From positions 1-39,588 of the IMG/VR virus record IMGVR_UViG_3300034072_000766: a stretch of DNA of 39,588 nt. One strand, 5' to 3'. Position 1 is the stretch's first letter. Each line of letters starts with the position of its first letter. The stretch is from a virus. The notes under the pieces are model-generated. The model saw only the letters and a list, made by a program, of their open reading frames with translations. It was not told where the DNA came from and did not search any database. Positions 12,233 to 28,994 of the stretch are shown piece by piece. The position numbers were made by a program, and so were the translations under genes.

Positions 12233-12249
12233 ATCCCATGCGCGTTCTC

Positions 12250-12268
12250 CTCCGCTTGCATGGTGATC
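12250..12268 (+). repeat. attL core, 19-bp direct repeat
   Basis: CTCCGCTTGCATGGTGATC is identical to 28831-28849, and the flanking bases differ at both ends. It lies 17 bp after the tRNA. GTCAATAAA occurs 16 bp inside it (12285-12293), and the same string lies 15 bp inside the right copy (28807-28815), as integrase arm sites would. Confidence 0.85.
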
Positions 12269-12305
12269 TAGAGTTGCCAATAAAGTCAATAAATACCAAT
12301 GACTT

Positions 12306-12328
12306 AGGCTCCGCAAGGGGCCTTTTTC
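12306..12328 (+). terminator. Rho-independent terminator
   Basis: AGGCTCC and GGGGCCT form a 7-bp stem (one G-T pair) around a GCAA tetraloop, followed by TTTTT. It lies 38 bp inside the element, downstream of the tRNA, and would stop outer-phage transcripts from entering the element. Confidence 0.85.
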
Positions 12329-12376
12329 ATGCGCTAAAAACGCTGTAAAAAAGCGTGAATGAAATCAACCGCTTGT

Positions 12377-12401
12377 CGGATGTTCTCGGATTTTAGCGGA
12401 T
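12377..12401 (+). promoter_or_regulatory. Three CGGAT repeats at 10-bp steps
   Basis: CGGAT at 12377, 12387 and 12397, exactly one helical turn apart, 36 bp upstream of the AlpA-like start and about 110 bp from the att core. Phased direct repeats of this kind are typical targets of small winged-helix excisionase/AlpA proteins. The binding protein is inferred. Confidence 0.5.
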
Positions 12402-12436
12402 ACTAGGCGCGACAAATGCGCAACAAGGAATGCAAC

Positions 12437-12640
12437 ATGGAACAGGATAAAGACCGGGCTGACCTGCTCTATGGCGTGCCCGAAATTGCAGAGTTTATGG
12501 GCAGGTCTACGGCAGCCGTATATCACCTAGCTCGCGCAACGGACTTCCCGAAATTCAAGCTTGGCGGCACGGTCTGCGCGCGTCGATCTAGTATCAACGC
12601 TTGGCTGGCTGACCTTGAAGCTAAGGCCCGCTGCGGATGA
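12437..12640 (+). CDS. AlpA/excisionase-like winged-helix regulator
   Basis: A 67-residue protein with a MerR/AlpA-type helix-turn-helix: LLYGVPEIAEFMGRSTAAVY (recognition region), ATDFPKFKLGGTVCARRSS (wing) and INAWLADLEA. This is the usual excisionase and satellite activator fold; in P4 and PICIs such proteins control integrase and early genes. ATG 12437 is preferred over 12416 because AAGGA precedes it at normal spacing. Its stop overlaps the Rep start (ATGA). The phased CGGAT repeats upstream are likely its own operator. Confidence 0.8.
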   Translation: MEQDKDRADLLYGVPEIAEFMGRSTAAVYHLARATDFPKFKLGGTVCARRSSINAWLADLEAKARCG

Positions 12641-13842
12641 AGGCGCGTAAGAAAGTTAGCCCGTTTGAACCGGGATGGAAGACGCCGGAGCCGTGTTTCG
12701 ATTTTCGAACGCACGGCTACTTCCCCCGAAGAGGCCGCAAGCAGTTCGTCATATCCGACCTGCTTGCCCTTGAGGAAATCAGCGTTGTCTATGGTGAGCC
12801 GGAGGCGGGCAAGGGCAATTTCGTTCTGAGCATGGCTTTAGCTGCTGCCAACGGCATGACTTGGTTCGGCAGGGATGCTGGTGTTCTTCGCGATGATGGC
12901 CTTTGGTGGCCCGCCGGCGTTCTGTACTTCGCTCTTGAGAGGGCGGCTCAAGTTGAGAGGCGCATCAACGCGTTCACCACCCACCACGGAATCATGTCTG
13001 ATATCCCTATCGCGGTCAGCGACGCAAAATTCGACATCCGCGAGGATAGGGCGGCCAGTATGATCGTGGAAACGGTCTATGAGGCGCATGATTGCTTTGA
13101 GTGCAGCAAGCTGCCGGGCGAGACCGACCGCCTGAGCGACTACCAGCCGGAAACCAACCTTGTCATCATCGACACCTTGGCCATGGCTCTTGCGGATGGA
13201 AACGACAGTGACCCAGGAGACCTTGGGCAAGCGATTAGGACATGCCACCGCATCAAGGATGAAACCGGCGCTCATGTATTGCTGGTTACGCACACCCCCA
13301 CAAGCGGCGATGCCCGAATTCGTGGTCATGGCAGCTTGAATGCAGCAATCGACTTGAGCATCCATGTTGACCAGAAGCGCGGCTCTCGGGTTGCATCCGT
13401 CAAAAAGAATAGTGATGGCGCAGAGAAGCCGAAGTTTTACTTCTCCCTGAAAAACATTCAGGAGCCGGTTATGTGGGACGACGAGGAAAGCGACTTTGTA
13501 ACTATCTCCCCCGCACCAATCCTTGTGGAGGAAGAGCCACCGAAGGCCAGTGATAAGCCGAAAGGCGAGGGCAAGCCGAAGGGACCATTACCAAGCAAAG
13601 GTGAGCAGCCCGTGCTGCATGCGCTGGCGGTATGCGCAGAACCGGTGGCCGAAGATGTTTGGCGTGCCGCATATGACGCTGCCAAGGATGAGGACATCAG
13701 CCCCGGCACCCACCGGACGCGGTTCTCTCGCGGTAAGGTCGCGCTAGTGGCAAAGGGCCTCATCAAGCAAGATGAGGCTGGCTTGTGGAGCGTTACAGTT
13801 TCACCGTTACAATCGGAAAACTGTAATTCTGAAATTCTGTAA
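12637..13842 (+). CDS. RepA-like AAA ATPase, satellite replication protein
   Basis: A 401-residue protein. A RepA/RecA-like ATPase domain (residues about 40-270) has a P-loop reading GEPEAGKGN (about 55-63), where the usual Ser/Thr after Lys is Gly, a Walker B-like NLVIIDTLAMAL (about 173-184) and VLLVTHTPTSG (about 213-223). A Lys/Pro/Gly-rich linker (about 295-325) leads to a C-terminal winged-helix-like domain. That domain (DVWRAAYDAAKDED through GLIKQDEAGLWSV) has the same layout as the end of the outer phage's primase/RepA protein. It lacks a primase domain. It probably binds the GTTACA repeats that begin in its own last codons. Confidence 0.8.
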   Translation: MKARKKVSPFEPGWKTPEPCFDFRTHGYFPRRGRKQFVISDLLALEEISVVYGEPEAGKGNFVLSMALAAANGMTWFGRDAGVLRDDGLWWPAGVLYFALERAAQVERRINAFTTHHGIMSDIPIAVSDAKFDIREDRAASMIVETVYEAHDCFECSKLPGETDRLSDYQPETNLVIIDTLAMALADGNDSDPGDLGQAIRTCHRIKDETGAHVLLVTHTPTSGDARIRGHGSLNAAIDLSIHVDQKRGSRVASVKKNSDGAEKPKFYFSLKNIQEPVMWDDEESDFVTISPAPILVEEEPPKASDKPKGEGKPKGPLPSKGEQPVLHALAVCAEPVAEDVWRAAYDAAKDEDISPGTHRTRFSRGKVALVAKGLIKQDEAGLWSVTVSPLQSENCNSEIL

Positions 13843-13929
13843 CGTCACGTTTTTCGACAGGTTTGGGCGCTCAGCCGTTACATCCGTCACATGTTACATA
13901 CCCCCTCTTTAGAGGGGTAGTAATGTAAC
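13792..13929 (+). repeat. Satellite origin-like GTTACA repeats and palindrome
   Basis: Six exact GTTACA/TGTAAC hexamers: forward at 13792, 13806, 13877, 13893; reverse at 13838 and 13924, plus looser copies. Near the right end, flanked by TA, is CCCCCTCTTTAGAGGGG (13901-13917), the counterpart of the outer phage's CCCCCTCTTAAGAGGGGG. It lies directly at and after the end of the RepA-like gene, so an origin or autoregulatory site is likely. Confidence 0.6.
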
Positions 13930-13976
13930 GTGTACGGCGTGACGCGCTTAGCCCTGTTTGCTTCATGGAGAGCAGC

Positions 13977-14249
13977 ATGGATTATGATGAAGTTTATGAT
14001 GCGGTGAAAAACGCATGTGATGATGCGTTGAAGCAGGAAGCTGATGACGCTGAAGTCCCCAAGAACGCATTTCCCATCAAGCCATTCAAGGCGGTGGATT
14101 TCTATGAAAGCCCTGTTGATGTCGTCGGCGTGGCACTAGTGGGGGCTGGCTTCGAATTCATTGTCATGAAGCGCGACCCTGCTGATGGCGATGCCATCTA
14201 TCTAAATCTCGAAAATCAGGTTTGGGACGCCCCTGAACCTTCACCGTAA
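13977..14249 (+). CDS. Hypothetical acidic protein
   Basis: A 90-residue, very acidic protein: DYDEVYDAVKNACDDALK, then EADDAEVPK, then a beta-rich part (VDVVGVALVGAGFEFIVMK). No family recognised. ATG 13977 has GGAGAG upstream; ATG 13965 is possible. It stands alone between the repeat region and the morphogenesis operon. The position would suit a regulator or DNA mimic, but nothing specific supports this. Confidence 0.5.
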   Translation: MDYDEVYDAVKNACDDALKQEADDAEVPKNAFPIKPFKAVDFYESPVDVVGVALVGAGFEFIVMKRDPADGDAIYLNLENQVWDAPEPSP

Positions 14250-14335
14250 TTCAGGGGTGGTGCCCTGATAGCCCGTGGCGCTCTTCTCCTCGCGCATCCG
14301 GGCGGCTGATCCGCTGGCAAGGCTGGCGTTGATCC

Positions 14336-14370
14336 CCCGCGCTCCCCGGTTTCGGCTGGGTGAGCGCGGG
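14336..14370 (+). other. 9-bp hairpin before the portal gene
   Basis: CCCGCGCTC (14336-14344) pairs perfectly with GAGCGCGGG (14362-14370), with a 17-nt loop and no T-run. It lies 27 bp before the portal start, in the only leader of the morphogenesis operon, so it could be a regulatory leader. Confidence 0.4.
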
Positions 14371-14397
14371 CGGTTAGCTCTCATGAAAAGGTACAAT

Positions 14398-15609
14398 ATG
14401 AACGTCTTCACCCGAGTGAGGCGAGCCTATTCGCTTGTCCGCAAATCCCTCTCAAATCCAACGGAGTTCGAAAAAGAGATCCTTGGCTTTCGGCAGGCGG
14501 CGGCAGGGATATCGGTCACGCCATCAATCGCAATGGAATGCTCTGCGGCTCGCGCTTGCGTGCAGGTTATTTCCGAAACAATCGGCCAGTTGCCGGTTAT
14601 CACCTACAAGAAGGGAGAGAACGGCCAGAAGGAAAGAAACCCTGACAGCCCAATCTACCCCCTTCTTCATGATGCCGTCACGGAATGGCTTTCGGCCAGT
14701 GAATTTCGTGAGATTGTCACCCGCGATGCTCTGCTCACTGGTAACGGTTACGCGTTGATTGAGCGGGATGGTGAGGAGGTCACCGGCCTCTTTCGCCTTT
14801 GCCCTGACCGGATGAAGGTTAACACGGACGAAGCGGCCGAACCGGTTTACAAGTACACGGATGATGGCAAGCAGATAGAATATCAGTATTCGGATGTCCT
14901 GCACATCCGCGCCCCCTCCTTTGATGGCTACACCGGCGCATCTCCCATTGTTGCTGCGCGAGAAGCGATTGCCCTAGCGGTGGTAATGGAGCGGCATGCC
15001 GCAACGCTGTTCAAGAATGGAGCGTCGCCCGGCGGCGTCATCGAGCACCCCGCACGGTTGGGTGATGATGTAGCCGAAAGGATTGAGAAAAGCTGGAATG
15101 CCACACATGGCGGAGACAATGCGGGCGGCGTTGCCGTGCTTGAAGAGGGCGCGTCATACAAGCAAGTCGGCATGACCAGCGCAGATGCTCAATTCCTCGA
15201 AATGCGAAAGCAGGCGAACGAAGACATTAGCCGCTTCTTCCGCGTGCCACCCATCTTCCTCAATGACTATGACCGGGCAACATGGGGGAACGGGGAGCAG
15301 CAGGGCACGCAGCTTGTGACCTATTGCCTGATGCCGTGGATGAAGAAGTGGGAGGCGGAAATTCGCCTGAAGCTCCTCAGTCCAGAAGAGCGAAAGACAC
15401 AATATGCAGAGTTCCTTGTTGATGACCTTCTCCGCGCCGACACAGCAGCGCGCTACGAAAGTTACGCCAAGGCAATCGCCTCCCGGTTCCTGTCTCCAAA
15501 CGAAGCCAGATCGCGGGAAAACCTGCCTCCCTATGACGGGGGCGATAAGTTCGAAAATCCGAACACAACCACCACGCCGGCCACCACGCCGGAGAAAGTG
15601 ACAGAATGA
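14398..15609 (+). CDS. Phage portal protein (HK97 gp3 family), satellite copy
   Basis: A 403-residue portal protein of the HK97 gp3 type. An N-terminal region with PSIAMECSAARACVQVIS precedes the conserved core DVLHIRAPSFDGYTGASPI and AATLFKNGASPGGVIEHP. The C-terminal part contains RFFRVPPIFLNDYDRATWGN and CLMPWMKKWE. It forms the dodecameric head vertex through which TerL pumps DNA. AAAGG precedes ATG 14398; longer upstream starts have no ribosome site. It is the first gene of the element's structural operon, unusually placed before rather than after the terminase genes. Its last bases overlap the next gene. Confidence 0.9.
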   Translation: MNVFTRVRRAYSLVRKSLSNPTEFEKEILGFRQAAAGISVTPSIAMECSAARACVQVISETIGQLPVITYKKGENGQKERNPDSPIYPLLHDAVTEWLSASEFREIVTRDALLTGNGYALIERDGEEVTGLFRLCPDRMKVNTDEAAEPVYKYTDDGKQIEYQYSDVLHIRAPSFDGYTGASPIVAAREAIALAVVMERHAATLFKNGASPGGVIEHPARLGDDVAERIEKSWNATHGGDNAGGVAVLEEGASYKQVGMTSADAQFLEMRKQANEDISRFFRVPPIFLNDYDRATWGNGEQQGTQLVTYCLMPWMKKWEAEIRLKLLSPEERKTQYAEFLVDDLLRADTAARYESYAKAIASRFLSPNEARSRENLPPYDGGDKFENPNTTTTPATTPEKVTE

Positions 15610-15932
15610 TTGAAAGACCCTTCGCCGGCGGAGAACACAAGTTCGCCTTTGGCTATGATGAAGCGGTTGAATGGGAGCGGCTACGGCGCAAGAGCCTTTA
15701 TCGCACGGCGCTGGAAATGGAAGATGACCGCTGGTTTATGGCCGATGTGATTGAGGTTGTTCGGCTTGGTCTTATTGGCGCGGGCATGCCCCAGTCAGAA
15801 GCGGATGATGCCGTTGAGTACAATGTCCGCAAACGCCCGCTCGCCGAAAACCGAAAGCTAGTTCTGGCAATCCTTGATGATGCGTACTTCGGTCCCAAGG
15901 AAGAAACTAAGACCGAAGAGGCCACAGAATGA
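15606..15932 (+). CDS. GTA gp10-like tail chaperone family protein
   Basis: A 108-residue protein. RPFAGGEHKFAFGYDEAVEW, then VIEVVRLGLIGAGMPQSEAD, then RPLAENRKLVLAILDDAYFG matches the gene-transfer-agent gp10/Phage_TAC_11 pattern, normally a tail assembly chaperone next to the tail tube gene. Here it lies between portal and capsid and overlaps both by 4 bases. A second, clearer chaperone is at 25320 in the same element, so this one may have another role. Confidence 0.6.
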   Translation: MIERPFAGGEHKFAFGYDEAVEWERLRRKSLYRTALEMEDDRWFMADVIEVVRLGLIGAGMPQSEADDAVEYNVRKRPLAENRKLVLAILDDAYFGPKEETKTEEATE

Positions 15933-17563
15933 CAAGGCTGGTCGTCAAAGCCAATAGCGTAAGCATTGGCAGTTCTGGCGAAGTCATAGGTATTGCATGG
16001 CCCTTCGGCTCACCAGATAGCGAAGGCGACGTCATCCGTAAGGGTGCCATTCGCTTCGCAAAAAATGTCCCCATGGTCATGGAGCACTACCAAGAGCAGG
16101 TTGTGGGGATTTGGCAGGACTTTGAAGAAACTGATGATGGCCTAGTGGTCAAAGGTCAGTTGTTTATCGAAGGCATCGGCCCCGCGCGAGAGGCGCACCG
16201 CAAGCTGAAATCCCGGCAGATCAACGGGCTTTCAATATCTTGGATTGGTGGAGATTCCGTTGCCCGACCCGGTGGCGGCCGCGAATACACCAGCATCACC
16301 ATCAACGAAATCTCTCTATGTCGCGACCCGGCTCACCCTGGCGCACGCGTCATCAATGTGAAATCCGCAAGCAGCGGGAAAGGCACGAAATTGAAAACTG
16401 CACCGAAGAAGAAAGCCGTTGAAGATCAGGTTCCGGCAAATGACAACGTTGACGAAAACGAAGAAGTGACCGTTGAGGAAGTCGATGAGCGAGTCGATGC
16501 ACTCGAAGCCGAACTGGCAGAAATCAAGGAGCTTGTCACCGGCACCAACGAAAGCGTTGCGGAAGTGACGAAGTCGGTTCGCCGTCTGGTCACCAAGTCC
16601 GCGCGTCCGGGCGCAAAGGTAGAAGCGCCTGAGAACGCCGAAGAGACCGCGAAGAAGGCTTTCGTTTCCTATCTTCGCCGCGGTGAAGACAGCACGGTCA
16701 CCAAGTCCCTGCGTCGAGGTTCTGACCCGAAGGGCGGCTATCTCGCTCCTCCGGAATTTGTTAAAGAACTCATTCGAGAAATCGTGGAACACTCCCCAAT
16801 CCGCGAAAACTCCTTTGTCGGCTCTACCGGCAGTTCTTCGGTCATCATCCCCGGCCGCGTCGGACGCACCAACGCCAAGTGGAAGGGCGAGACCGAAACG
16901 CAGGAAGAAAGCACCTTCGACTTCGAAGAGCAAGAAATCGCAATTCATGAAGTCAACACCTTTGTTGATGTCAGCAACCAGCTCCTAGAAGATTCCGAAA
17001 TCGACGTAGAGGCAGAAATTCGCCTTGCTTTCGCTGAGGATCTTGGCGGCAAGGAAAGTGAAGCATTCCTCTTCGGTGATGGCGTGAAGAAGCCAAACGG
17101 CTTCATGGTCGATCCGCGCGTCACTGACTTTGCTTCCGGTGCGGCCGAGGCGGTTACCGCTGACGGTCTTATCCAGATGCTCTACTCCGTCCCGCAGGTC
17201 TACCGCTCTTCTGGTGTATGGACGATGAACGGCACTACGCTGGGCGTTCTCCGCACCCTCAAGGATGGTGAAGGAAACTATATCTGGCGCCCCGGCCTCA
17301 CCGAGGGCCAGCCTGAAACGCTCCTTGGCCGTCCGGTAGTTGAAGCTCTGGATATGCCAGACATTGCTGCAGGCGCAACTCCGATTGTCTTCGGTGACCT
17401 GAAGCAGGCGTACCGCATCTATGACCGCACGGATATTGAGGTTCTCACCAACCCGTACCTGCTGGCCACGGAAAGCAAGACCCGCTTCCACCTCCGTAAG
17501 CGCCTTGGTGCCGGCGTGGTTCGTCCGTCCGCAATCAAGAAGCTGCGCATCGCCGTTTCCTAA
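15929..17563 (+). CDS. Fused HK97 prohead protease and major capsid protein
   Basis: A 544-residue fusion. Residues 1-155 form an S78 prohead protease: VMEHYQ (catalytic His near 52), GLSISW (catalytic Ser near 102) and a TINEISLCRDPAHPGA strand. Residues about 155-240 are an acidic, coiled-coil scaffold-like delta region (DERVDALEAELAEIKELV), preceded by VPANDN. Residues about 240-544 are the HK97 gp5 fold: GGYLAPPEFV, WKGETETQEE, FLFGDGVKKPNGF, YIWRPGLTEGQPETLLGRPV and FGDLKQAYRI. The outer phage makes these as two genes with an unrelated ClpP-type protease. The protease would have to release itself during maturation. Confidence 0.92.
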   Translation: MTRLVVKANSVSIGSSGEVIGIAWPFGSPDSEGDVIRKGAIRFAKNVPMVMEHYQEQVVGIWQDFEETDDGLVVKGQLFIEGIGPAREAHRKLKSRQINGLSISWIGGDSVARPGGGREYTSITINEISLCRDPAHPGARVINVKSASSGKGTKLKTAPKKKAVEDQVPANDNVDENEEVTVEEVDERVDALEAELAEIKELVTGTNESVAEVTKSVRRLVTKSARPGAKVEAPENAEETAKKAFVSYLRRGEDSTVTKSLRRGSDPKGGYLAPPEFVKELIREIVEHSPIRENSFVGSTGSSSVIIPGRVGRTNAKWKGETETQEESTFDFEEQEIAIHEVNTFVDVSNQLLEDSEIDVEAEIRLAFAEDLGGKESEAFLFGDGVKKPNGFMVDPRVTDFASGAAEAVTADGLIQMLYSVPQVYRSSGVWTMNGTTLGVLRTLKDGEGNYIWRPGLTEGQPETLLGRPVVEALDMPDIAAGATPIVFGDLKQAYRIYDRTDIEVLTNPYLLATESKTRFHLRKRLGAGVVRPSAIKKLRIAVS

Positions 17564-17633
17564 TCGGTCAACACATCACTGACTTTAGAGGGCTGCTTTC
17601 GGGTGGCCCTTCCTATTTCGCGAAAGGAATAAT

Positions 17634-18017
17634 ATGCGCGATCTTTCTCATAACATTGGCACCAAACTTGCGGTTGCCCCAGCGGTACAGACCGCAAGCG
17701 TGAATGGCCTGTCCATTGACACAAAAGACTTCGGCTCACTCGCTTTCGTCATTGCCACCGGCGCCATTGACGCTGCCGGCGTGTTCAATGCGAAAATTCA
17801 GGAGTCCGACACCGGCACATCTGGCTGGACCGACGTTGACCCTGAGCTTGTAACCGGAGCGTTTGCCAGCCCACTGGCTGCGAACTCGACCACAAAGGCG
17901 GGTTACATTGGCTACAAGCGCTATGCGCGTCTCGTGCTCACCAAGGGCACCGGAACTTCGCTTGTGATTGGTGCGGTGGCCGTTCAGGACCACGCAATCA
18001 AGCGCCCGGTAGCTTAA
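17634..18017 (+). CDS. Probable head decoration or structural protein
   Basis: A 127-residue protein, beta-rich, with VNGLSIDTKDFGSLAFVI, then FNAKIQESDTGTSGWTDV, then GYIGYKRYARLVLT. Proteins of this pattern commonly follow the capsid gene in rhizobial and rhodobacterial prophages and are probably capsid-associated. The role is inferred from position. GAAAGGAA precedes ATG 17634; a terminator follows 12 bp after the stop. Confidence 0.6.
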   Translation: MRDLSHNIGTKLAVAPAVQTASVNGLSIDTKDFGSLAFVIATGAIDAAGVFNAKIQESDTGTSGWTDVDPELVTGAFASPLAANSTTKAGYIGYKRYARLVLTKGTGTSLVIGAVAVQDHAIKRPVA

Positions 18018-18028
18018 TCACCTATCAC

Positions 18029-18054
18029 AAGGCTCGCTTCGGCGGGCCTTCTTC
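18029..18054 (+). terminator. Rho-independent terminator
   Basis: AAGGCTCGC and GCGGGCCTT form a 9-bp stem (one G-T pair) around a TTCG tetraloop, followed by CTTCTT. It lies between the decoration-like gene and the tail tube gene, so it may tune rather than end late transcription. Confidence 0.7.
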
Positions 18055-18069
18055 TTATGAGGTAAACAC

Positions 18070-18495
18070 ATGGCACAGCAAATCGGTCGCACGCTGCTTA
18101 TTCAGATTGGCAACGGCCTTGATCCTGAGGTCTTCACTAACTTGTGTGGCCTGACGACACGCAGTTTCGGTCTTAGCACCAATTCGGTTGAGACAACCAT
18201 TCCGGACTGCGAAAATCCCGCTGACCCGCCGCAGCGCACTTCCGAACCGGGCATCAACAATCGTACGTTCTCCGGCTCTGGTGCCTTTGTGAAGAGCGCC
18301 AACACTTCGGCCTTCTTCAACTATGTGGTCAATTCCGAAGTGTTCAATGCGAAAGTCATTGTTCCCGGTCTTGGCACATTCACCGGCCCATTCTTCGTTG
18401 CTGACTTCGAGCTTACCGGCGAAACCGAAGGCAACATGCAGTTCTCCGCTACCTTCGAGCCCACGGGCAAGTTGGCGTTTGTAGCCGAAGCCTAA
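18070..18495 (+). CDS. Major tail tube protein (TP901-1 type), satellite copy
   Basis: A 141-residue protein. GRTLLIQIGNGLDPEVFTNL, then CGLTTRSFGLSTNSVETTIPDC, then FTGPFFVADFELTGETEGNM and FSATFEPTGKLAF match the Phage_tail_2/TP901-1 major tail family. It would polymerise into a siphophage tail tube. A same-family protein is encoded in the outer phage at 37934, with the same PDC...DPP/DAP region, so the two tubes can be compared directly. Tail-tube genes are unexpected in known capsid-forming satellites. Confidence 0.85.
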   Translation: MAQQIGRTLLIQIGNGLDPEVFTNLCGLTTRSFGLSTNSVETTIPDCENPADPPQRTSEPGINNRTFSGSGAFVKSANTSAFFNYVVNSEVFNAKVIVPGLGTFTGPFFVADFELTGETEGNMQFSATFEPTGKLAFVAEA

Positions 18496-18660
18496 TCAGG
18501 TGGCACATGAAGAGGGCAACGGGTAGACCGCTATCGCGGTCCCCTTACGGGCCTGTCCGCCAACGGTAGACGCCTCTCCGCCACCAGCATTCGTTCAGGG
18601 AGTCAAGGCGTCACGGTCCAGAGCATCCCCTTTCTCCTTTGAGGGGTAACTGCTCACGTG

Positions 18661-18695
18661 CGGGCGAGGCCCATCCAACCTCGCCCGGTTTTTTT
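18661..18695 (+). terminator. Strong rho-independent terminator
   Basis: CGGGCGAGG (18661-18669) pairs perfectly with CCTCGCCCG (18679-18687), then G and seven T. It lies in the 213-bp gap between tail tube and HNH genes. An additional short hairpin GACCGC/GCGGTC lies near 18527-18542. It divides the structural genes into two transcription blocks. Confidence 0.85.
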
Positions 18696-18708
18696 ACATG
18701 AGGCTCAT

Positions 18709-19062: not shown

Positions 19063-19136
19063 CGAAACTTTGGCCTTGGGGCCGTGGACCGTCGGGGGCC
19101 ACAACTTCGTGATTTTTCCTATTTGGAGTTTTGAGA

Positions 19137-20943: not shown

Positions 20944-22537
20944 TGATGGCTCCGAAATTGAAGACCCTCTAGGTTATGCGGCCCGCAACATTGAGTGGCT
21001 GGAGAAGCTGAAGCATCCCAAGAACAAGGCAAAGGGCAATCGCTTCACCCTTGATGAATGGCAGAAGCGCATACTTCAGAAAATCTTCGGGCCGCGTAAC
21101 CCAGACGGGACAATGATTGTCCAGCAGGTCTTCCTGCTTCTCCCTAGAGGCAACAGAAAAACATCTCTCTGCGCGGCCATCACCGCGCTTTTTCTTTTCG
21201 GTCCTGAGAAGGTCACCGGCACGCTTATCCAATCTGCCGGTGCAGCCCGAAAGCAGGCGCGAGAGTGCTATGAAGAGCTTGCCAGCATCGTGCAGTTTGA
21301 TGGCCGGCTCCGGGGTAACATTCGACTTCAGGACTACAAGAGCCGCATCATCTACCCGAAGCACCGCACGCGCTATGAGGCGGTCTCTGCCGACGCGGGC
21401 GTTCTCCATGGTGGCACGCCAAGGCTTGTCATTGCTGACGAGCTTCATGTGTGGAAGCACCGCGACCTTTGGGATGCGCTGGATTCCTCACTGACCAAAA
21501 CTGATGACAGCATAATGATGATCGCCACCACGGCGGGCCGAGGGCAGAACAACATTGCCTTTGAGAAATTCAACTATGCCTGCAAGGTCCAGCGCGGCGA
21601 AGTGGTCGATGATACGTTCTTGCCGGTAATCTTCTCCGCTACCAAGGATGAAGATTATAAGGATGAGGCGGTCTGGAGGGCGGTCAATCCGGGGCTTAAT
21701 TGCCCGGTGCCGTATCCGTCCCTCAAGAAGCTTCGGGCGCTTGCCAACAAGGCGGAGCACTCCCCCGGTGACAGGGATGAGCTTCAGCAGCTACATCTCA
21801 ATGTCTGGCTCGATAACTCCACAAGCAGCTTTGTTGAGATGCGGGAATATGACCGGGGCGCAGAACCTTTTGACATCGAGCAGTTTGCGGGTAAGCCGTG
21901 CTGGGTGGGCGTTGATATGTCTACTAGCGTTGACCTTACTTGCGTCGTTGCATGCTGGCGCGGCGAGGGCGACCACCTCTACGCTCACGCTCACCACTTT
22001 TGCCCGGAAGAGGGCATCCACAAGAAGGCCATTGTTGACGGCGTTCCTTATCCTCACTGGCAAGAGAAGGGGTTTATCACGCCCACCCCCGGAGTGAAGA
22101 TCGATCAGGACTATGTTGAGCGGTACATCACCGGCTTGTGCCAGAAGTACCGTGTGCAGGAAATCGCATTCGATGATGCCTATGCGGGCCTGCTCATTGC
22201 GTCACTCCAGAAAAGTCACCATCCGGTGATAACCATGCAACAGGGGTGGAAAACTCAATCCCCCGCGCTGATGCGCCTAGAGGCAAGGATACTTGCGGGA
22301 GAATTTCATCACGGCGGCAATCCCGTTCTGCGGTGGAATTTTGAAAACGCTGTTGTGAATACCGACAGCAACGGCAATCGCACGCTCCACAAAGGCAAAT
22401 CAACAGACCGAATTGACGGGTGCTTCGCAACATGGATGGCGGCCGACCGCGCTTCATTCGGTGGCAATCTTGATTCCGTCTACAGAGATCAAACGGCGCG
22501 GCCCGGTGGGCTTCGCATAATTGGAGGTCGTCGTTGA
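20915..22537 (+). CDS. Terminase large subunit, satellite copy
   Basis: A 540-residue HK97-type TerL. The N-terminal ATPase has an atypical Walker [11 protein letters not shown] (residues about 74-83), Walker B VIADELH (about 171-177) and coupling motif IATTAG. The C-terminal RNase H-like nuclease has [13 protein letters not shown] (first Asp), IAFDDAYAG and a late Asp in [10 protein letters not shown]. It pumps and cuts DNA at the portal. The Met chosen at 20915 has AAGGG upstream; 20906 is possible. The gene overlaps TerS by about 29 bases and ends TGATG with the tape-measure gene. Confidence 0.9.
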
Positions 22538-24537
22538 TGGCCAGAACCGAAGATGACCAGTTAGTATTCGCGCTTGAGACCCGCATCCGGGATCTTGAGC
22601 GCAACATGAACAAGGCCGCCAGAATTGTTGGAAAATCTGGCGACCAGATCGAGAGCCGGTTCAAGAAGCTCTCCAACTCAGTTTCTACCGGGGTGACCGG
22701 TGCCGTGGACAAGGCCAATGCGGCACTAGGTAAGCTGGGGATTGGTGCGACTATCGGCGTGGCGGGTATCACCGCCGCCGTTGCAGGTGTGCAGCAGCTT
22801 TCGGACACCGTTGCCAGAACTGGTGATGCGGCTCGCCGGGCTGGACTGGATTTTAAGACCTTCCAGCAACTGGCCTACGTCGCGAAGTCAAACCGCATTG
22901 AAGTTGATGCTTTAACTGATGGTGTGCGTGAGCTTCAGCTTCGCGGTGCTGAATTCTTTTCTACCGGGGAGGGCAGTGCGGCTGAAGCTTTTAAGGCTCT
23001 TGGGTATTCTGCGGAAGAGGTCCGTGAAAAGCTCAAGCAGCCTTCTGCCTTCCTCACCGAAATCTTGGACAAGCTCAAGCAGTTCGACAAGGCCAGCCAA
23101 ACCCTGATGACCGACTCCCTTTTCGGTGGAACCGCCGCCGAAGAGTTCGTGCGCCTCATCGATCAGGGCGCTGACGGAATCAGGCGAACCATCAGCGAGG
23201 GTGAGGCACTCGGCCAGGTGCTGACTGATGACGTGCTAGTGAAGGCGCGTGACCTTGATGATGTGTTCCGCGATGTCGGGGACACGGTGGGCGGCCACCT
23301 CAAGGCACTCATCATTGAGGCGTCTTGGGAGCTCGCCCGATTCATTGACACATGGCGAGGTTTCGAGAACCAGCGAACCACCACCCTTGATGCCAGCCTT
23401 GCCAGCATCGGTGAGAAGCGTCTTGAGATTGAGACCAAAATTCTTGAGTTGCGCGACCAGATGCGCAACAACACAAGCTTTCTGGCGCAGGCGGAAAACC
23501 GGCAAACCGAAGCGACAATCAAGGCGCTTCAGGAGCAATCCGACAAGCTCAACCAGCAAGAGTCCGAAATCCTTGGCGTGCTGAAAAAGCGCGACCCGGC
23601 GACCTCTCCTAGCAACCCGCCGCCGACTCGGACGTTGCCGCCTCCGCCACCGGATAAGGGCGGCGGAAGAAGTAAGGCGGCATCTGATGCGGAGCGCGAG
23701 CGCGAGGCCGTGGATAGGCTCATTGAGTCTTTGGATTTCGAATACTCGATGATTGGCAAGACCGACGTGCAGCGGGAAAAGATGCTTGCCTTACGGCAGG
23801 CGGGCAAGGCCGCCACTGAGGAAGAAAAGCTCGCCATCATGAGTAAGGTTGACGCGATTTATGCGGAAACCGAAGCCTATGATAATGCGAAGGCAGCGGC
23901 AGAAGACGCCAGAGATGCAGCGCGTGATTTCGCCGGCACGTTGGTGAATGGCTTGGTAGAGGGCAAAAGCGCGACAGAGGCGCTAGGCGATGCCCTCAAG
24001 AACCTTGGCAGCCGCCTGATAAATTCTGGCCTTGATAGCCTATTCGGTATGGGCGGCAAGGGCGGCGGCATCTTCGGCGGGCTGTTCAACCTCTTCGGTG
24101 GTGGAACCTCCGCGGCCTCATATGCTGGCCTATCAGGCGGCTTGTTTTCTGACGGCGGCTACACCGGCGATGGGACGAAGTACGAACCTGCGGGGGTGGT
24201 CCATAAGGGCGAATACGTCTTTGATGCCGATGCAGTCCGCAAGGCAGGCGGTCCGAAAGCGATGGAGGCTATGCGCCGCAATCTCAAGGGGTATGCGGAC
24301 GGTGGCTATGTCGGGGCTGCCCCGGCGCTTGCTACGCCATCTGTTAGCAAATCGAGTGATGGCTCTTCGGGAGCGTCATCGACCGTTCTCAACTTCTCTC
24401 CAACGATCAACGCTGAAGGAGCAGATGCGGCCGGATTGGCGCGCGTTGAGGCGAGCCTCAACCGGCTCAAAGCGGAATTCAACACTCGCGTTGAGGGCGC
24501 AGTCAGAGACGCCCGCAAGCGTAACGTGAAACTATAA
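22537..24537 (+). CDS. Tail tape measure protein, short
   Basis: A 666-residue protein. An N-terminal coiled coil ([20 protein letters not shown]), a hydrophobic glycine-rich helix ([20 protein letters not shown]), long alpha-helical repeats, a Pro-rich break (about residues 355-375) and the characteristic C-terminus [20 protein letters not shown] then [10 protein letters not shown]. These are hallmarks of lambda-type tape measures, which set tail length (roughly 0.15 nm per residue, so about 100 nm). It follows TerL directly, an unusual neighbour. GGAGG precedes ATG 22537. Confidence 0.85.
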
Positions 24538-24549
24538 GGATATTACAAC

Positions 24550-24684
24550 ATGGCACTTTTTACTGGATCTATCCTTGCGAGCTTCGGCGCGGGATTGGCT
24601 GGCGTTTTCACCAGTATTGGCACCTGCCTGCTTCGAACGAACTTCGAGGAATTTAGTATGGAGGATTACCATGACCGCCATTAA
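24550..24684 (+). CDS. 44-residue hydrophobic small protein
   Basis: MALFTGSILASFGAGLAGVF begins a hydrophobic helix of about 24 residues, followed by a polar tail ending SMEDYHDRH. AAGGA lies 9 nt upstream of the ATG, and the gene fills the tape measure-downstream gap, overlapping the next gene by 14 bases. It could be a membrane microprotein or a relic of a larger tail protein that often follows the tape measure. Unknown. Confidence 0.55.
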   Translation: MALFTGSILASFGAGLAGVFTSIGTCLLRTNFEEFSMEDYHDRH

Positions 24685-25312
24685 CACCTTCGTTCGCGAA
24701 AGCGGCATCTATTTCGTTGTCGACGGCGCGACCTACCTGCCAGCTATGGGGGGGCAACCAGCCAAGAGGGGGCGGATGGCCAAGGTTCATCACCTGCCTT
24801 GGCTCGGCGCTGCATTCGCAATCACCGGCCCCGTCATGGCAACGTTCTGTCACGGCCCGATGATTGGTGACAGCCCAGCCAAGAACTTCGACGAGTTCGC
24901 TACGGGCTTCCCTGAACTCCTCAAGCGGGGCGCGGACGATATGCGGAAGGCCGGGCAGGCCCATCTATTCGGCCCTTGTGAGGTCGTCATCGGTGGGTGG
25001 TCAGATGAGCGCCAGCGCTATGAAGCATATGCCGTCAGTACAGACAGCAGCATTTCAAACGGCAAGCCGGCATTCACCCTGCGGCCAGTCACGAAGTACA
25101 TCAGACCTTATCCGCCGGCTGCCGTCGGTGCTGAATTCCACCCAGAGAGCGCGGCGCGAGACGGCATGCGCATTCTTGAGATGCAGCGCCGTGCGAATGT
25201 CGAATCGCCAGACGGAAAAAGCGTCAGCGGCGCAATCGGCGCATTCGCTCAGCTTGCACACCTTACCCGTGACGGCATGACGTCAAAGCTTATCGGCTTG
25301 TTTGAGGACTAG
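24671..25312 (+). CDS. Tail-region protein, possibly Ntn-hydrolase fold
   Basis: A 213-residue protein. TAINTFVRESGIYFVVDGAT, then KVHHLPWLGAAFAITGPVMA, then CEVVIGGWSDERQRYEAYAV resembles phage tail proteins with a proteasome-like (Ntn hydrolase) layout: a first strand, DGA, a hydrophobic strand ending in Gly, and a GGWS strand. No catalytic N-terminal Thr is evident after Met (TAI is possible if Met is removed). GGAGGA precedes ATG 24671. Function unknown; the position after the tape measure suggests a virion or tail-assembly role. Confidence 0.5.
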   Translation: MTAINTFVRESGIYFVVDGATYLPAMGGQPAKRGRMAKVHHLPWLGAAFAITGPVMATFCHGPMIGDSPAKNFDEFATGFPELLKRGADDMRKAGQAHLFGPCEVVIGGWSDERQRYEAYAVSTDSSISNGKPAFTLRPVTKYIRPYPPAAVGAEFHPESAARDGMRILEMQRRANVESPDGKSVSGAIGAFAQLAHLTRDGMTSKLIGLFED

Positions 25313-25319
25313 ACTGCGA

Positions 25320-25850
25320 ATGAACCACAGCCTTTCCGTATGCAAAATAGCCGGGGAGTGGCGGCAATTGCGGCTTACTCTTGGCGCAGCATTTGCCATC
25401 GACGCATCTATTCCTGATGGTATGGATGCGTTTCTAGACCGAGTGCAGAACGGCTCCTTTATGATGAGGGAGTTTCGCACGGCCGTAGCAAGCTTGTTGG
25501 TGGGGGGTGGCATGTCATACGCCGCTGCTCAGCAATGCATAGCGGCTTCTGGATTGCAGGAAGTAACTAAGATTTGCCTCTCAATCCTCATCTGCTGCAT
25601 GTCTCCGGACGAAGGCCAGCCACAGAAGGAAACCGGCGGACCAACTGAAGTCTACCGCTTAAAGGACAAGGCGGCAGAGATTTACTCCATGGCTTTCCAA
25701 ATCGGTCTCAAGCCGCATGAGGTGAGGGATATGACGGTATGGGAGTGGAGTAGATGCGTGGAAGGCTGGAACCGCGCACATGGTCGCGGTGATGAGTTGA
25801 AGGCGCCCGCGAAGAGCGAACTGGATGATCTTGTGGCAAAGTACAGTTAG
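25320..25850 (+). CDS. Fused tail assembly chaperone
   Basis: A 176-residue protein. The N-terminal part (WRQLRLTLGAAFAI, then LDRVQNGSFMMREFRTAVAS, then LLVGGGMSYAAAQQC) parallels the outer phage's GTA gp10-like chaperone (38377). The C-terminal part (KDKAAEIYSMAFQIGLKPHE, then DMTVWEWSRCVEGWNR) parallels the outer small downstream frame (GKLRFAALYGTAAVMGF, then EMSVWQFMAAVDGY). In most siphophages this product arises only by programmed frameshift; here it is one open frame. GAGGA upstream supports ATG 25320. Confidence 0.65.
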   Translation: MNHSLSVCKIAGEWRQLRLTLGAAFAIDASIPDGMDAFLDRVQNGSFMMREFRTAVASLLVGGGMSYAAAQQCIAASGLQEVTKICLSILICCMSPDEGQPQKETGGPTEVYRLKDKAAEIYSMAFQIGLKPHEVRDMTVWEWSRCVEGWNRAHGRGDELKAPAKSELDDLVAKYS

Positions 25851-26146
25851 GGGCGAGAAATCGCCCCCAGCAGCCCCAGATAGGGCAGGCGCACGATGAC
25901 AGTCGAATTCCTGGCAATATCCATCAGGGTGCCGACTTCGCACGCCCCATCATAAGGACGGCCACGGCGGGCGCATGACGCGGCTGCGCTGTCGATGATC
26001 CTATAGCCGACCAGTCCAGCCGCAATGATGGTGCGGCCTTCCGGTGCTCCATTGGATGGCGGGACTACAATTATGCGAACGCCGGCAATCCAGATGATTG
26101 CGGCAAGCAGGGCGGCGATGAGGGCAAGCGGTATGGCGGTCTTCAT
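25847..26146 (-). CDS. Membrane-anchored hypothetical protein
   Basis: A 99-residue protein on the minus strand, the only reversed gene in the element. The N-terminus KTAIPLALIAALLAAIIWIA is a signal-anchor or transmembrane helix, followed by a periplasmic-looking domain with two Cys (SCARRG, GACEVG). It converges with the chaperone gene, the stops overlapping by 4 bases. The ribosome site before ATG 26146 is poor; a GTG at 26170 is possible. I do not recognise it; lysogeny-expressed cargo (membrane or envelope effect) is plausible. Confidence 0.55.
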   Translation of the reverse strand: MKTAIPLALIAALLAAIIWIAGVRIIVVPPSNGAPEGRTIIAAGLVGYRIIDSAAASCARRGRPYDGACEVGTLMDIARNSTVIVRLPYLGLLGAISRP

Positions 26147-26389
26147 GGCCGCACATTGCCAGAAAGACACACGCGCGCAAGTGCTTTCCCCGGTGGGGGG
26201 AATTAACTTGAAGTTTACGCTGTTTTAGCTAGGTTGTCCGTGGGCGTCAGAACCCGGACCAGTGATAGGCAAGCAGACGATTGGCGTCGTCGCTGCCGAT
26301 GCGTGAGACCCTTGGCGGGGTCAAAATCGCTATGCCGTGCGACTTGGCGGTTGCACGAACCCGACCTTTATAGGCCGGGGGAGTGCGCT
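26147..26389. other. Gap between convergent block and accessory genes
   Basis: About 240 bp. I see no gene or strong promoter; TTGCAC near 26353 and TATAGG near 26369 are poorly spaced. It would have to contain the promoters for the reversed gene and the following small-gene operon. Confidence 0.3.
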
Positions 26390-26626
26390 ATGTCCAGATG
26401 GGAAACCATTAAAATCGTGCTGCTTGTCTCACTGGCAAGTTCTGAACCCCCGGCCGCCGGTCTGATACCGGCTCTAGGAGCATCCCGCCGTCAGAAGCGC
26501 CGTGCTCCCCCGCCGTCAGAAGCGGGCCGACCAGTGAGCAAAACAAATGACTTTCAAATTCAATCCCGCATCCTATGCGGACATGCCTTCACACCTAATT
26601 CGCCGGGATATCTCTTCGCAAGTTGA
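26390..26626 (+). CDS. Doubtful small ORF
   Basis: A 78-residue frame starting MSRWETIKIVLLVSLASSE after GGGGGAG, with one hydrophobic N-terminal helix and a basic Pro/Arg-rich middle. Its last third overlaps the better supported gene at 26547 in another frame. A tandem 16-bp repeat (CCCGCCGTCAGAAGCG at 26484 and 26509) falls within it. It could be a small membrane protein or no gene at all. Confidence 0.25.
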   Translation: MSRWETIKIVLLVSLASSEPPAAGLIPALGASRRQKRRAPPPSEAGRPVSKTNDFQIQSRILCGHAFTPNSPGYLFAS

Positions 26627-26768
26627 GCGAATGATTGACTATCTCGATTCGCTTGAACCGGATTGTGACATCGAGGTTGACGCCGACATTGAAGCGGCAG
26701 AGACCGACCAGAACGAAAATGAGCCTTATTGCGGCTTCGCGCGGGACTATTGGGAGGAAATGGCATGA
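26547..26768 (+). CDS. Small acidic protein
   Basis: A 73-residue protein: KFNPASYADMPSHLIRRDIS, then VERMIDYLDSLEPDCDIEVD, then an acidic tail with GFARDYWEEMA. The DLEP/DIE-rich layout is common in small rhizobial prophage proteins of unknown role. It starts the four-gene coupled block leading to the HNH gene; its stop overlaps the next ATG. Confidence 0.6.
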   Translation: MTFKFNPASYADMPSHLIRRDISSQVERMIDYLDSLEPDCDIEVDADIEAAETDQNENEPYCGFARDYWEEMA

Positions 26769-26992
26769 GAGCCTTTCCAGACCTTGAATCCGAAGTTTGC
26801 GACGTATTCAACGCGACCCGCGTTGCCTTGGATTACGTTTCCGCTCAGTTGCTTTCCGTTATGGATAATGATGAGGCGAACACCGCCGCCTACATTCTCC
26901 ATGATGCCGCCAACAGAGCGGCGCTTCTCAAGATGAAGTTCTATGATGCGATGCGGGAGCATCACGCCGAAGCCTTGGCAGGTGCGGCATGA
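26765..26992 (+). CDS. Small helical protein
   Basis: A 75-residue, wholly helical protein (FPDLESEVCDVFNATRVALD, then NTAAYILHDAANRAALLKMK). The start at 26765 is set by ATGA overlap. It has no membrane segment and no recognised family; it ends ALAGAA, overlapping the next start. Confidence 0.6.
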   Translation: MRAFPDLESEVCDVFNATRVALDYVSAQLLSVMDNDEANTAAYILHDAANRAALLKMKFYDAMREHHAEALAGAA

Positions 26993-27183
26993 ACTGGCGC
27001 GACGTGTATCCAGAGGGCAGCACTGCTATGATCGACGGTGAGCGCTTCGAAGTAAGGCACAATCCACACGGTCTCGGCATTGACCTGCACCGCAGGTCTG
27101 ACGGCACGTTGGCTGTAACCATCGCACCTGATTACGTGCCGGTGATAGTCGACGGCATTGCCTTTAGGGAGGTGCGAGCATGA
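26989..27183 (+). CDS. Small beta-rich protein
   Basis: A 64-residue protein (NWRDVYPEGSTAMIDGERFE, then GTLAVTIAPDYVPVIVDGIA). No family recognised. It is coupled to both neighbours by 4-bp overlaps. Confidence 0.55.
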   Translation: MNWRDVYPEGSTAMIDGERFEVRHNPHGLGIDLHRRSDGTLAVTIAPDYVPVIVDGIAFREVRA

Positions 27184-27455
27184 CTAGCAAGCGCGTTACG
27201 CTTCGTCAGACGCTTCGGGAGAGGCAGAAGGGCAGATGCTGCTATTGCGCCGTGGAAATGGTCCCATACGTGAGCGTAGCTGGACGCCGTGTGAGCGGCA
27301 AGTGTGAAACGCTTGAGCATCTTCGCCGTAAGTCTGATGGCGGAACCAATGCAATCGACAATATGGCGCTGGCTTGCGCGACCTGCAACCAGAGCCGTGG
27401 CGGGCTTGATTGGCTGACCTACAAGACGATGAAGATGGGGGAGGCTCACCGATGA
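27180..27455 (+). CDS. HNH endonuclease, accessory
   Basis: A 91-residue HNH protein: RCCYCAVEMVPY, then ETLEHLRRKSDGGTNAIDNM, then ALACATCNQSRGG supply two CxxC zinc knuckles and the H-N-H core (EHL...N...N). It is a second HNH gene in the element, small and unlinked to terminase. It could be a nuclease acting on a competing phage or host DNA (inference). It overlaps the following microgene by ATGA. Confidence 0.75.
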   Translation: MTSKRVTLRQTLRERQKGRCCYCAVEMVPYVSVAGRRVSGKCETLEHLRRKSDGGTNAIDNMALACATCNQSRGGLDWLTYKTMKMGEAHR

Positions 27456-27535
27456 TCACGCCAATCGCACACATCGGGCTCTTTGCTTCCTTGGCGTGGT
27501 GGGTGGCTTTCGCTTCACCTCTTTCCCCATTCTGA
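27452..27535 (+). CDS. 27-residue membrane microprotein
   Basis: MITPIAHIGLFASLAWWVAF begins a single hydrophobic helix that fills most of the 27 residues. GGGAGG lies about 9 nt upstream, and the ATG overlaps the HNH stop (ATGA), so translation is likely coupled. A terminator follows 6 bp after the stop. Role unknown. Confidence 0.5.
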   Translation: MITPIAHIGLFASLAWWVAFASPLSPF

Positions 27536-27541
27536 AAACAC

Positions 27542-27573
27542 CCCGGCCCGGTCATTCAGTGGCCGGGCTTTTT
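27542..27573 (+). terminator. Rho-independent terminator before integrase
   Basis: CCCGGCC (27542-27548) pairs with GGCCGGG (27561-27567), an alternative GCCCGG/CCGGGC pairing overlaps it, then CTTTTT. It separates the accessory operon from the integrase gene 20 bp downstream. Confidence 0.8.
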
Positions 27574-27593
27574 GACATGATGAGGAGAATATA

Positions 27594-28775
27594 ATGGCAA
27601 CAGTTAGCAAAAGAGAATGGGAGCACGCCGGCGTCAAGAAGACCGCTTGGGTTGTCCGCTACAGTGACCAGCTTGGAAAGCGCCGCCTCAAGACCTTTGA
27701 GAAGAAAAAGGATGCCGAGGCTTACAAGGTGCAGGTGCAGACCGAGATAGGCGACGGCACCCACCTTGCAGACCGGAGCAATGTCACCGTTTCTGATGCC
27801 TTGAAGGACTTCGCTAAGACCTTGGATGAGAGGGTGGCAACCGGCGACAAGATGCGCTTCAAGACGGCCTACGAGTGGAAGAACCGCATGAAGGTGCACA
27901 TCCGGCCACTGCTTGGAAGCGTCAAGCTTACGAAGCTCACACCGGTCATCATACAGGACTTTGTTCGGTCCGTTGCCGACGTCGGCGGAGCTAACCGCAG
28001 CCGAGCCACCGTGACAAAATGCCTTCAAGTTCTGCAGGCCGCAATTGATGACGCAGTTGCGCGTGGAAAGCTTGCTCGCCGAATTGATGTGCTTGAGGGT
28101 GTCCGCATGATAGGCCAGCCCAAGAAAAAGGTGACTATCCCGACCAAGGCAGAAATCTTTCAGGCGCTGGAGGCGGCAAAGGGGTGGTTCCGGCCTATCC
28201 TCTACATGGCCGTTTTCACCGGCATGAGGCAGGGTGAAATTCGCGGCCTTCAATGGAGTGAGGTTGATCTTGATAAGGGGCTGATAGAGGTCAAGCAAGC
28301 GGCTTGCACGCTCTCCGGCATGATCCATACGCCGAAGTCACAGGCGGGTTTCCGGGTGATCCACATGGCACCGGAGTTGGTCGCCGAGCTAAAGGCATAC
28401 AAGGATAAGCAGAGCAAGACAGACGGACTTGTATTCCTTGGCAAGGATGGTCCGCTTGACCCTCGCGCCGTTCATGCCGCATGGGTGCGCTTGCAGACTG
28501 ACCTTGGATGGTGCCCGCCGCGTCCAGATTCGGAGAGGCCAAACACGCGCCGAAGCAAGTACAACTCTTCTGGCAAGTTTTCCTTTCACGCCCTGCGGCA
28601 CGTCACGGCCAGCCTCCTTGTTGAGAGTGGAGCATCCCCGCAACTCATCATTTCGATGATGGGACACGCAAGCATCACCATGACCCACAGCACTTACACC
28701 CACAGCTTCGACGACGCCAAGAACCGCGAAAAGACCACAGCGATGCTGAGAGAAGCCTTGTTTGAGGAGGCGTGA
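27594..28775 (+). CDS. int: Tyrosine-type site-specific integrase
   Basis: A 393-residue protein. An N-terminal arm-binding region (WVVRYSDQLGKRRLKTFEKK) and SAM-like core-binding domain (about residues 60-150) precede the catalytic domain with Arg in FTGMRQGEIRGL (near 208), HALRH (near 331-335), GH in MMGHAS and the nucleophile Tyr in STYTH (near 367). It inserts the element at the 19-bp core only 55 bp downstream. GAGGAG precedes ATG 27594. Confidence 0.93.
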   Translation: MATVSKREWEHAGVKKTAWVVRYSDQLGKRRLKTFEKKKDAEAYKVQVQTEIGDGTHLADRSNVTVSDALKDFAKTLDERVATGDKMRFKTAYEWKNRMKVHIRPLLGSVKLTKLTPVIIQDFVRSVADVGGANRSRATVTKCLQVLQAAIDDAVARGKLARRIDVLEGVRMIGQPKKKVTIPTKAEIFQALEAAKGWFRPILYMAVFTGMRQGEIRGLQWSEVDLDKGLIEVKQAACTLSGMIHTPKSQAGFRVIHMAPELVAELKAYKDKQSKTDGLVFLGKDGPLDPRAVHAAWVRLQTDLGWCPPRPDSERPNTRRSKYNSSGKFSFHALRHVTASLLVESGASPQLIISMMGHASITMTHSTYTHSFDDAKNREKTTAMLREALFEEA

Positions 28776-28830
28776 CCGCGACAAGGGCGCGACATGTTGG
28801 AAATATGTCAATAAAATCAACGTCTTTGAT

Positions 28831-28849
28831 CTCCGCTTGCATGGTGATC
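28831..28849 (+). repeat. attR core, 19-bp direct repeat
   Basis: Identical to 12250-12268. GTCAATAAA at 28807-28815 precedes it. The sequence beyond is outer-phage DNA beginning with a terminator. Confidence 0.85.
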
Positions 28850-28851
28850 GT

Positions 28852-28890: not shown

Positions 28891-28994
28891 TTTTTCCTTC
28901 AGACAATCCGTGGCTAGACCGGCCAGTTGAAAGCGAGAGTCCACTCGTTGCCACGGATTCCAAGCGTGGACGCAAGCAATGGACACTTGCCAAA

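What the first reader, a model, noticed from the sequence alone, without database searches (positions are those of the whole stretch)
12250..28849. A capsid-encoding satellite-like element sits inside another prophage
A 16.6-kb unit with its own integrase, AlpA-like regulator, Rep protein, terminases, portal and capsid is bounded by a perfect 19-bp repeat. It splits a siphophage exactly between the early/tRNA region and the HNH-terminase late region. Removing it recreates a conventional phage map. Capsid-forming satellites are known to integrate in host chromosomes; residence inside a phage genome would link it physically to a possible helper and let it ride along or block the helper's late genes.
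Basis: partly seen in the sequence, partly recalled or inferred. Interest (0 to 1): 0.88.

Follow-up and report, generated by a model that had tools for sequence, protein, structure and literature searches.

The report
Phage satellite embedded in another prophage
A 16.6-kb virus-like parasite that carries its own capsid, DNA-packaging and tape-measure genes has integrated inside a larger bacterial-virus genome, within a small structured-RNA gene of that virus, and related elements sit inside the late genes of other alphaproteobacterial prophages.

Summary
Confirmed. The 12250-28849 unit is an integrated element inside another phage. Thirty-nine other viral contigs carry its target site uninterrupted, with one 19-bp core. 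In L008 the two window flanks are joined across that core at 98% identity.

The element is intact: terminator, AlpA, helicase-type Rep, portal, protease-capsid fusion, HNH, connectors, TerS/TerL, tail tube, tape measure, integrase. I found no tail-tip, receptor-binding or lysis gene.

The case is not unique. Three other contigs carry an AlpA-to-integrase element seen at both ends: inside terL, at the 3' end of terL, and in a capsid gene. A fourth shows the left end (portal); three more show only the right end.

The known precedent is the enterobacterial helper-embedded PICI (PMC10111431). Here the integrase lineage differs, the gene order is reversed, and head plus tail-tube and tape-measure genes are carried. 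The window's site is not a protein gene. It is an Rfam-unmatched phage RNA: a hairpin with a CUCCUC loop plus a terminator, supported by compensatory changes. The element keeps the hairpin and supplies a replacement terminator.

Satellite behaviour (helper dependence, induction) is inferred. Verdict: new variant of a known kind.

The parts
12156..12232 (+). outer phage tRNA-Met (CAT)
   Evidence: ARAGORN; conserved next to the empty site in many relatives
12233..12268 (+). hairpin 1 of the outer phage's structured RNA (CU-rich loop UUCUCCUC), left intact by the insertion
12250..12268 (+). attL core, 19 bp
12269..28849 (+). integrated element, 16,581 bp including one core copy
   Evidence: empty sites in relatives
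12307..12327 (+). element-borne terminator-like hairpin (GGCTCCGCAAGGGGCCTTTTT) just inside the left end
   Evidence: hairpins in the same place in four other embedded elements
12416..12640 (+). AlpA-like regulator/excisionase
   Evidence: PHROG 66 and Pfam HTH_17
12637..13842 (+). AAA_25 helicase-type replication protein
13902..13917 (+). palindrome CCCCTCTTTAGAGGGG after Rep, candidate origin
   Evidence: same palindrome after the outer primase at 10315
14275..15609 (+). portal protein
   Evidence: PHROG 12, E 8e-116
15606..15932 (+). tail assembly chaperone-like (Phage_TAC_11, GTA-gp10)
15929..17563 (+). prohead protease-major capsid fusion
   Evidence: PHROGs 80 and 10
17634..18017 (+). 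conserved protein of the module (phrog_5707)
   Evidence: 71% in L115
18070..18495 (+). tail tube protein
   Evidence: PHROG 1407 and Pfam Phage_tail_2
18658..19062 (+). HNH endonuclease
19330..20566 (+). neck, head closure and tail terminator genes
   Evidence: PHROGs 5, 25, 176
20566..20943 (+). terminase small subunit
   Evidence: PHROG 83
20906..22537 (+). terminase large subunit
   Evidence: PHROG 9, E 2e-127
22534..24537 (+). tape measure protein, 667 aa
   Evidence: PHROG 10574, E 1e-138
24575..27183 (+). accessory region, mostly unknown; 25302-25850 is chaperone-like
   Evidence: no lysis or tail-tip family found
27180..27455 (+). second HNH protein
27594..28775 (+). tyrosine integrase, adjacent to attR
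   Evidence: PHROG 1 and Pfam Phage_integrase
28831..28849 (+). attR core, 19 bp
28850..28889 (+). outer phage RNA's own terminator hairpin, now stranded right of the element
   Evidence: compensatory changes in relatives
28869..32459 (+). outer phage: homing endonuclease-like gene, HNH, TerS, TerL (start of the late region)

Best explanation
The unit is a helper-embedded, capsid-encoding phage satellite. Its tyrosine integrase recombined a 19-bp core into a phage RNA gene that lies between the phage's early region and its HNH-terminase late region. Shown: the insertion, its exact ends, the intact gene set, and empty sites in relatives. Hairpin 1 of the RNA survives at attL, and a terminator-like hairpin supplied by the element lies just inside its left end. 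Inferred: while integrated it is replicated and moved with the host phage; on induction AlpA and Int excise it and the phage site is restored; Rep amplifies it; its own head, terminase, tail tube and tape measure build particles; the tail tip, receptor binding and lysis come from the helper.
For: Empty sites: 39 exact-core contigs and 9 variants. The gene set is intact and no lysis or tail-tip family was found in it. A syntenic capsid-packaging-tape-measure module without recognised tip or lysis genes recurs in L115, S. meliloti pSymB and a 17.5-kb circular Paracoccus plasmid; TerL relatives occur in 125 genome stretches, the listed ones alphaproteobacterial. Related elements (AlpA first, integrase last, same direction as late genes) sit in other prophages: both ends are seen in terL at about codon 90 (G001), the terL 3' end with a 16-bp repeat (G004), and a capsid gene at about codon 375 with an 11-bp repeat (G002); L024 shows the left end in portal; G649, G003 and G005 show right ends in head genes. 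Four more embedded elements carry a hairpin just inside the left end. The site RNA has 14 pairs with two-sided changes, 0 of 500 shuffles equal.
Against: No excision, induction or particle data exist. Helper dependence rests on the absence of recognisable tip and lysis genes, and several accessory genes (24575-27183) are unidentified. The same site was not found occupied in any other contig or genome searched. The outer phage is truncated at the contig end, so its own later tail genes are unseen. None of 80 genome loci with the related terminase shows an insertion in a split late gene.
Confidence: 0.77

Rival explanations
1. The inner unit is an ordinary autonomous small temperate phage that happens to have integrated into another prophage; its tail tip and lysis genes are present but too diverged to recognise.
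For: It has head, packaging, tail tube, tape measure, replication and integrase genes, and several unknown genes at 24575-27183.
Against: Only about 2.6 kb of unassigned sequence remains, none of it matching PHROG or Pfam tip or lysis families. Relatives in S. meliloti and Paracoccus lack recognised tip genes as well. Related elements repeatedly sit inside phage head genes, which fits a satellite better than chance.
Confidence: 0.13
2. The region is a defective mosaic: two prophages recombined and neither is functional now.
For: Phages of this group are mosaic; the window's late module differs in type from that of most exact-core relatives.
Against: Exact att duplication, integrase beside attR, AlpA beside attL, all major open reading frames intact, and empty sites matching both flanks.
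Confidence: 0.06
3. The contig is an assembly chimera of two elements.
For: The window comes from a public viral-contig set; its reads were not available.
Against: A 19-bp repeat is shorter than usual assembly words; both junctions coincide with an att core, with the integrase and AlpA at the expected ends; parallel cases occur in other contigs.
Confidence: 0.03
4. The conserved insertion site is the outer phage's cos site rather than an RNA gene, so integration would directly control packaging.
For: It lies just upstream of HNH and TerL in the relatives and has a dyad.
Against: Stems change on both sides while pairing is kept, a Rho-independent-type terminator follows, and the loop is CU-rich. 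No contig was found to end inside the box.
Confidence: 0.07

Closest known systems
Helper-embedded PICIs (HE-PICI), e.g. 11capE in E. coli NRG857c (PMC10111431)
   Same: Small AlpA/Rep/integrase satellite carrying capsid genes, integrated in a prophage, all main genes in the direction of the late genes, short identity block at the ends, several different late sites used by related integrases.
   Different: Integrase only 21% identical to that of 11capE. There integrase and AlpA stand at the upstream end; here AlpA is upstream and the integrase downstream next to attR. The site in the window is an RNA gene. Hosts are alphaproteobacterial. A complete head-packaging module plus tail tube and tape measure is carried.
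Capsid-forming PICIs (cfPICI)
   Same: About 14 kb on average in the literature (PMC10803314) against 16.6 kb here; own capsid and packaging genes (TerS, TerL, portal, HNH, connectors), AlpA and integrase.
   Different: This element also encodes tail tube, tail terminator, chaperone and tape measure. It resides in a phage, and the alphaproteobacterial groups are outside the host list given in PMC10803314.
Mulch and Flayer satellite-helper systems of Streptomyces (PMC10690885)
   Same: Satellites that encode their own encapsidation genes (abstract).
   Different: Different hosts and a different satellite-helper arrangement; not compared by sequence here.
Small capsid-gene plasmids of Alphaproteobacteria (Paracoccus marcusii 17.5 kb, Roseomonas mucosa 16.9 kb)
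   Same: Homologous portal, protease-capsid, HNH, TerS and TerL genes, and tape measure in the Paracoccus plasmid.
   Different: Circular plasmids, not embedded in a phage; no integrase of this type found.

Membership tests
HE-PICI | integrated inside a prophage with an identity block at both ends | tested here: met
   19-bp core and empty sites
HE-PICI | integration site within a late protein gene | tested here: not met
   in the window the site is a noncoding RNA gene upstream of the late region; met by the related elements G001 and G002
HE-PICI | integrase belongs to the HE-PICI clade | tested here: not met
   21% identity over 308 columns, E 0.005, to the 11capE integrase; only one member was compared
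HE-PICI | integrase and AlpA at the upstream end, in late-gene direction | tested here: not met
   direction met; order differs: AlpA upstream, integrase at the downstream end
HE-PICI | excision after induction of the composite | not testable with these tools
   needs an inducible strain
cfPICI | own capsid, portal and both terminase subunits | tested here: met
cfPICI | integrase, AlpA and replication gene | tested here: met
cfPICI | no tail genes; tails taken from the helper (from own knowledge of the family) | tested here: not met
   tail tube 18070, tail terminator 20177, tape measure 22534 present
cfPICI | mobilised by a helper phage | not testable with these tools
   no strain
complete temperate siphophage | tail tip, receptor-binding and lysis genes | tested here: not met
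   no PHROG or Pfam match in 24575-27593; a few unknown ORFs remain

The most novel reading that the evidence does not exclude
Alphaproteobacteria harbour their own class of helper-embedded satellites, evolved separately from the enterobacterial HE-PICIs. Its integrases repeatedly choose sites in or beside phage head and packaging genes. Its members carry capsid and tape-measure genes, and the terminator at their upstream end cuts the helper's transcript until excision. One member targets an undescribed phage small RNA and rebuilds that RNA's 3' end on integration.
Probability: 0.5. Interest if true: 0.85.

Novelty: new variant of a known kind. Interest (0 to 1): 0.72.

Why it matters
It indicates that living inside a helper phage is not a peculiarity of lambda-like phages of enterobacteria: a different integrase lineage in Alphaproteobacteria does it at several sites. 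These satellites carry structural genes up to the tape measure, so the line between satellite and phage is thinner here. Integration into a phage RNA gene that keeps the hairpin parallels the well-known use of tRNA genes. It also points to a conserved phage RNA with a loop that resembles the complement of a ribosome-binding site, whose job is unknown and testable.

Tried and rejected
Cos site as the identity of the insertion box: first favoured for its position and dyad, then set back when two box variants and diverged relatives showed an RNA with compensatory stem changes and a terminator, and when no contig was found to end in the box.

Occupied copies of the same site in 84,980 genomes: none with the attR-type pattern. 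In 395 genomes of one family the core was found twice, both empty.

Embedded copies among 80 genome loci of the related terminase family: none by the split-gene test.

Shorter tape measure in satellites than in phages: not supported; lengths overlap.

Structure of the unknown 24665-25312 protein: model too poor to use, pLDDT 38.

Close DNA relatives among GenBank phages: none for 15000-39588.

One clade for all embedded integrases: the small tree leaves most branches unresolved and mixes in ordinary phage integrases.

Full report
WHAT IS THERE. The window is a complete IMG/VR record of 39,588 bases. A perfect 19-bp direct repeat stands at 12250 and 28831. Between the copies all assigned genes run rightward: AlpA-like regulator, AAA_25 replication protein, portal, tail-assembly-chaperone-like protein, prohead protease-capsid fusion, a conserved unknown, tail tube, HNH, neck, head closure, tail terminator, TerS, TerL, a 667-aa tape measure, accessory genes, a second HNH and a tyrosine integrase next to the right copy. 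To the left lies an early region of another phage (Mu Gam-like, helicase, methyltransferases, primase-polymerase) ending in a tRNA-Met. To the right lies its late region (homing-endonuclease-like gene, HNH, TerS, TerL, portal, protease, capsid, connectors, tail tube) up to the contig end.

THE INSERTION IS REAL. A scan of 2.9 million viral contigs found the 19-mer in 39 contigs. All 39 are uninterrupted: sequence like that left of the window's left copy is followed by one core and then by sequence like that right of the window's right copy. In L008 the left flank matches over 113 bp (98%) through the core, and the right flank over 73 bp (98.6%). Where flanking genes could be seen the order is early gene (homologue of 10434-10928) - core - HNH - TerL - portal. 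A scan with the left half of the box added nine more uninterrupted variants.

WHAT THE SITE IS. The conserved box folds as two hairpins. The first has an invariant UUCUCCUC loop, the second is followed by a T-run; folding z-scores are about -6. A covariance model found diverged relatives in other prophages, in most cases with homologues of the outer phage's HNH or of its last early genes nearby, including phages with the window's TerL type. In an alignment of 14 distinct rows, 14 of 25 pairs have changes on both sides with pairing kept, 0 of 500 shuffles reach this, and slid controls collapse; that alignment was fitted to the model and so leans towards it. Rfam has no match there. I therefore read the site as a phage structured-RNA gene with its terminator. 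Its function is unknown; from general knowledge a CUCCUC loop could pair with ribosome-binding sites. The 19-bp core covers the loop's 3' half and the 3' arm of hairpin 1. At attL hairpin 1 stays complete, and the element provides a terminator-like hairpin about 40 bases inside (12307-12327), while the phage's own terminator is stranded to the right of attR. This is like integration at the 3' end of a tRNA gene. The alternative that the box is a cos site is kept as a rival at low weight.

NOT A ONE-OFF. Relatives of the integrase, and the core scan, led to other prophages with related elements. G001 (L124/L109): an element of about 9.8 kb splits terL at codon ~90 (N part residues 6-94, C part 85-384 of L103's TerL). 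G002 (L125/L126): about 9.9 kb splits a protease-capsid-type protein at residue ~375 with an 11-bp repeat. G004 (L123/L112): 16.0 kb at the 3' end of terL with a 16-bp repeat. L024: AlpA at 73% and Rep at 37% identity to the window's, following a portal gene cut at about codon 113, in a contig that still has the empty RNA site. G649, G003 and G005 show only the integrase end, followed by the remaining part of a portal or other head gene; these three identifications were read from the translated sequence by eye. Where both ends are seen, AlpA stands at the upstream end, the integrase at the downstream end, and the direction is that of the late genes. The five known left ends have a hairpin just inside; three have a clear T-run, two a weak one. 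The interiors of G001 and G004 carry replication-initiator-like, capsid and tape-measure genes, and G003 a tape measure; G002 gave no capsid hit.

THE CAPSID MODULE. The same gene order from portal to TerL and tape measure occurs in L115, on Sinorhizobium pSymB plasmids, on a 17.5-kb circular plasmid of Paracoccus marcusii and around TerL relatives in genomes of Hyphomicrobiales, Rhodobacterales, Azospirillum and others. Some groups show head genes only (for example L139, L142, L153-L157). None of those 80 genome loci was embedded by a split-gene test, so embedding goes with the integrase type, not with the capsid module.

HOW IT PROBABLY WORKS. Shown: insertion, ends, gene content, empty sites, and the recurrence of related elements in other prophages. 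Inferred: AlpA and Int excise the element on induction, which reunites the two parts of the phage; Rep and an origin-like palindrome after it (13902, similar to one at 10315 in the outer phage) replicate the element; its own terminase fills its own capsids; tail tube and tape measure are its own, while the tip, receptor binding and lysis would be borrowed. The upstream hairpin may keep helper transcripts out of the element and, where a late gene is split, silence the genes behind it until excision.

KNOWN KINDS. Helper-embedded PICIs are described in PMC10111431 (491 cases at 14 sites in lambda-like late genes). I compared the type case, 11capE: its integrase lies at the opposite end and is 21% identical. 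Capsid-forming PICIs are discussed in PMC10803314 and PMC11389934. The window combines both ideas, fails one or more defining features of each, and is filed as a new variant rather than a member.

LIMITS. No functional data. The integrase tree is small and mostly unresolved. The host of the window's phage is unnamed; exact cores were found in two genomes of the family around G012 (Rhizobium herbae, L152), which points to rhizobial hosts.

Noticed in passing
12233-12268 and 28850-28889; L008:4846-4921; L065:8171-8251; L231-L237: A structured RNA with no Rfam match in rhizobial prophages: hairpin with CU-rich (CUCCUC) loop plus terminator hairpin, with many compensatory changes.
   Followed up: partly
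L115:3930-4000: The capsid-module element L115 has a hairpin with the same TTTCTCCTC loop and a following T-run, upstream of its portal gene (weak model match, E 3.5e-4).
   Followed up: no
10315 and 13902: Outer phage and inner element share the palindrome CCCCTCTTWAGAGGGG right after their Rep genes, with different flanking repeats; candidate origins of one type.
   Followed up: partly
L226:9407-10636: A gene cassette of about 1.1 kb sits between the structured RNA and a second copy of its terminator.
   Followed up: no
L008:9002-9110, L029:10449-10594, L230:2415-2513: Rfam ar35 small RNA matches in these phages, separate from the insertion site (the L008 match is below the gathering score).
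   Followed up: no
28869-29993: Homing-endonuclease-like gene (374 aa, TTG start, overlaps the terminator) between the RNA site and the HNH gene of the outer phage.
   Followed up: no
L139, L141, L142, L153-L157: Variants of the capsid module that keep portal, protease-capsid, HNH, TerS and TerL but show no neck, tail or tape-measure hits.
   Followed up: no
L024: One contig carries both the empty RNA site and a related element in its portal gene, so two sites in one phage type are used by relatives.
   Followed up: partly
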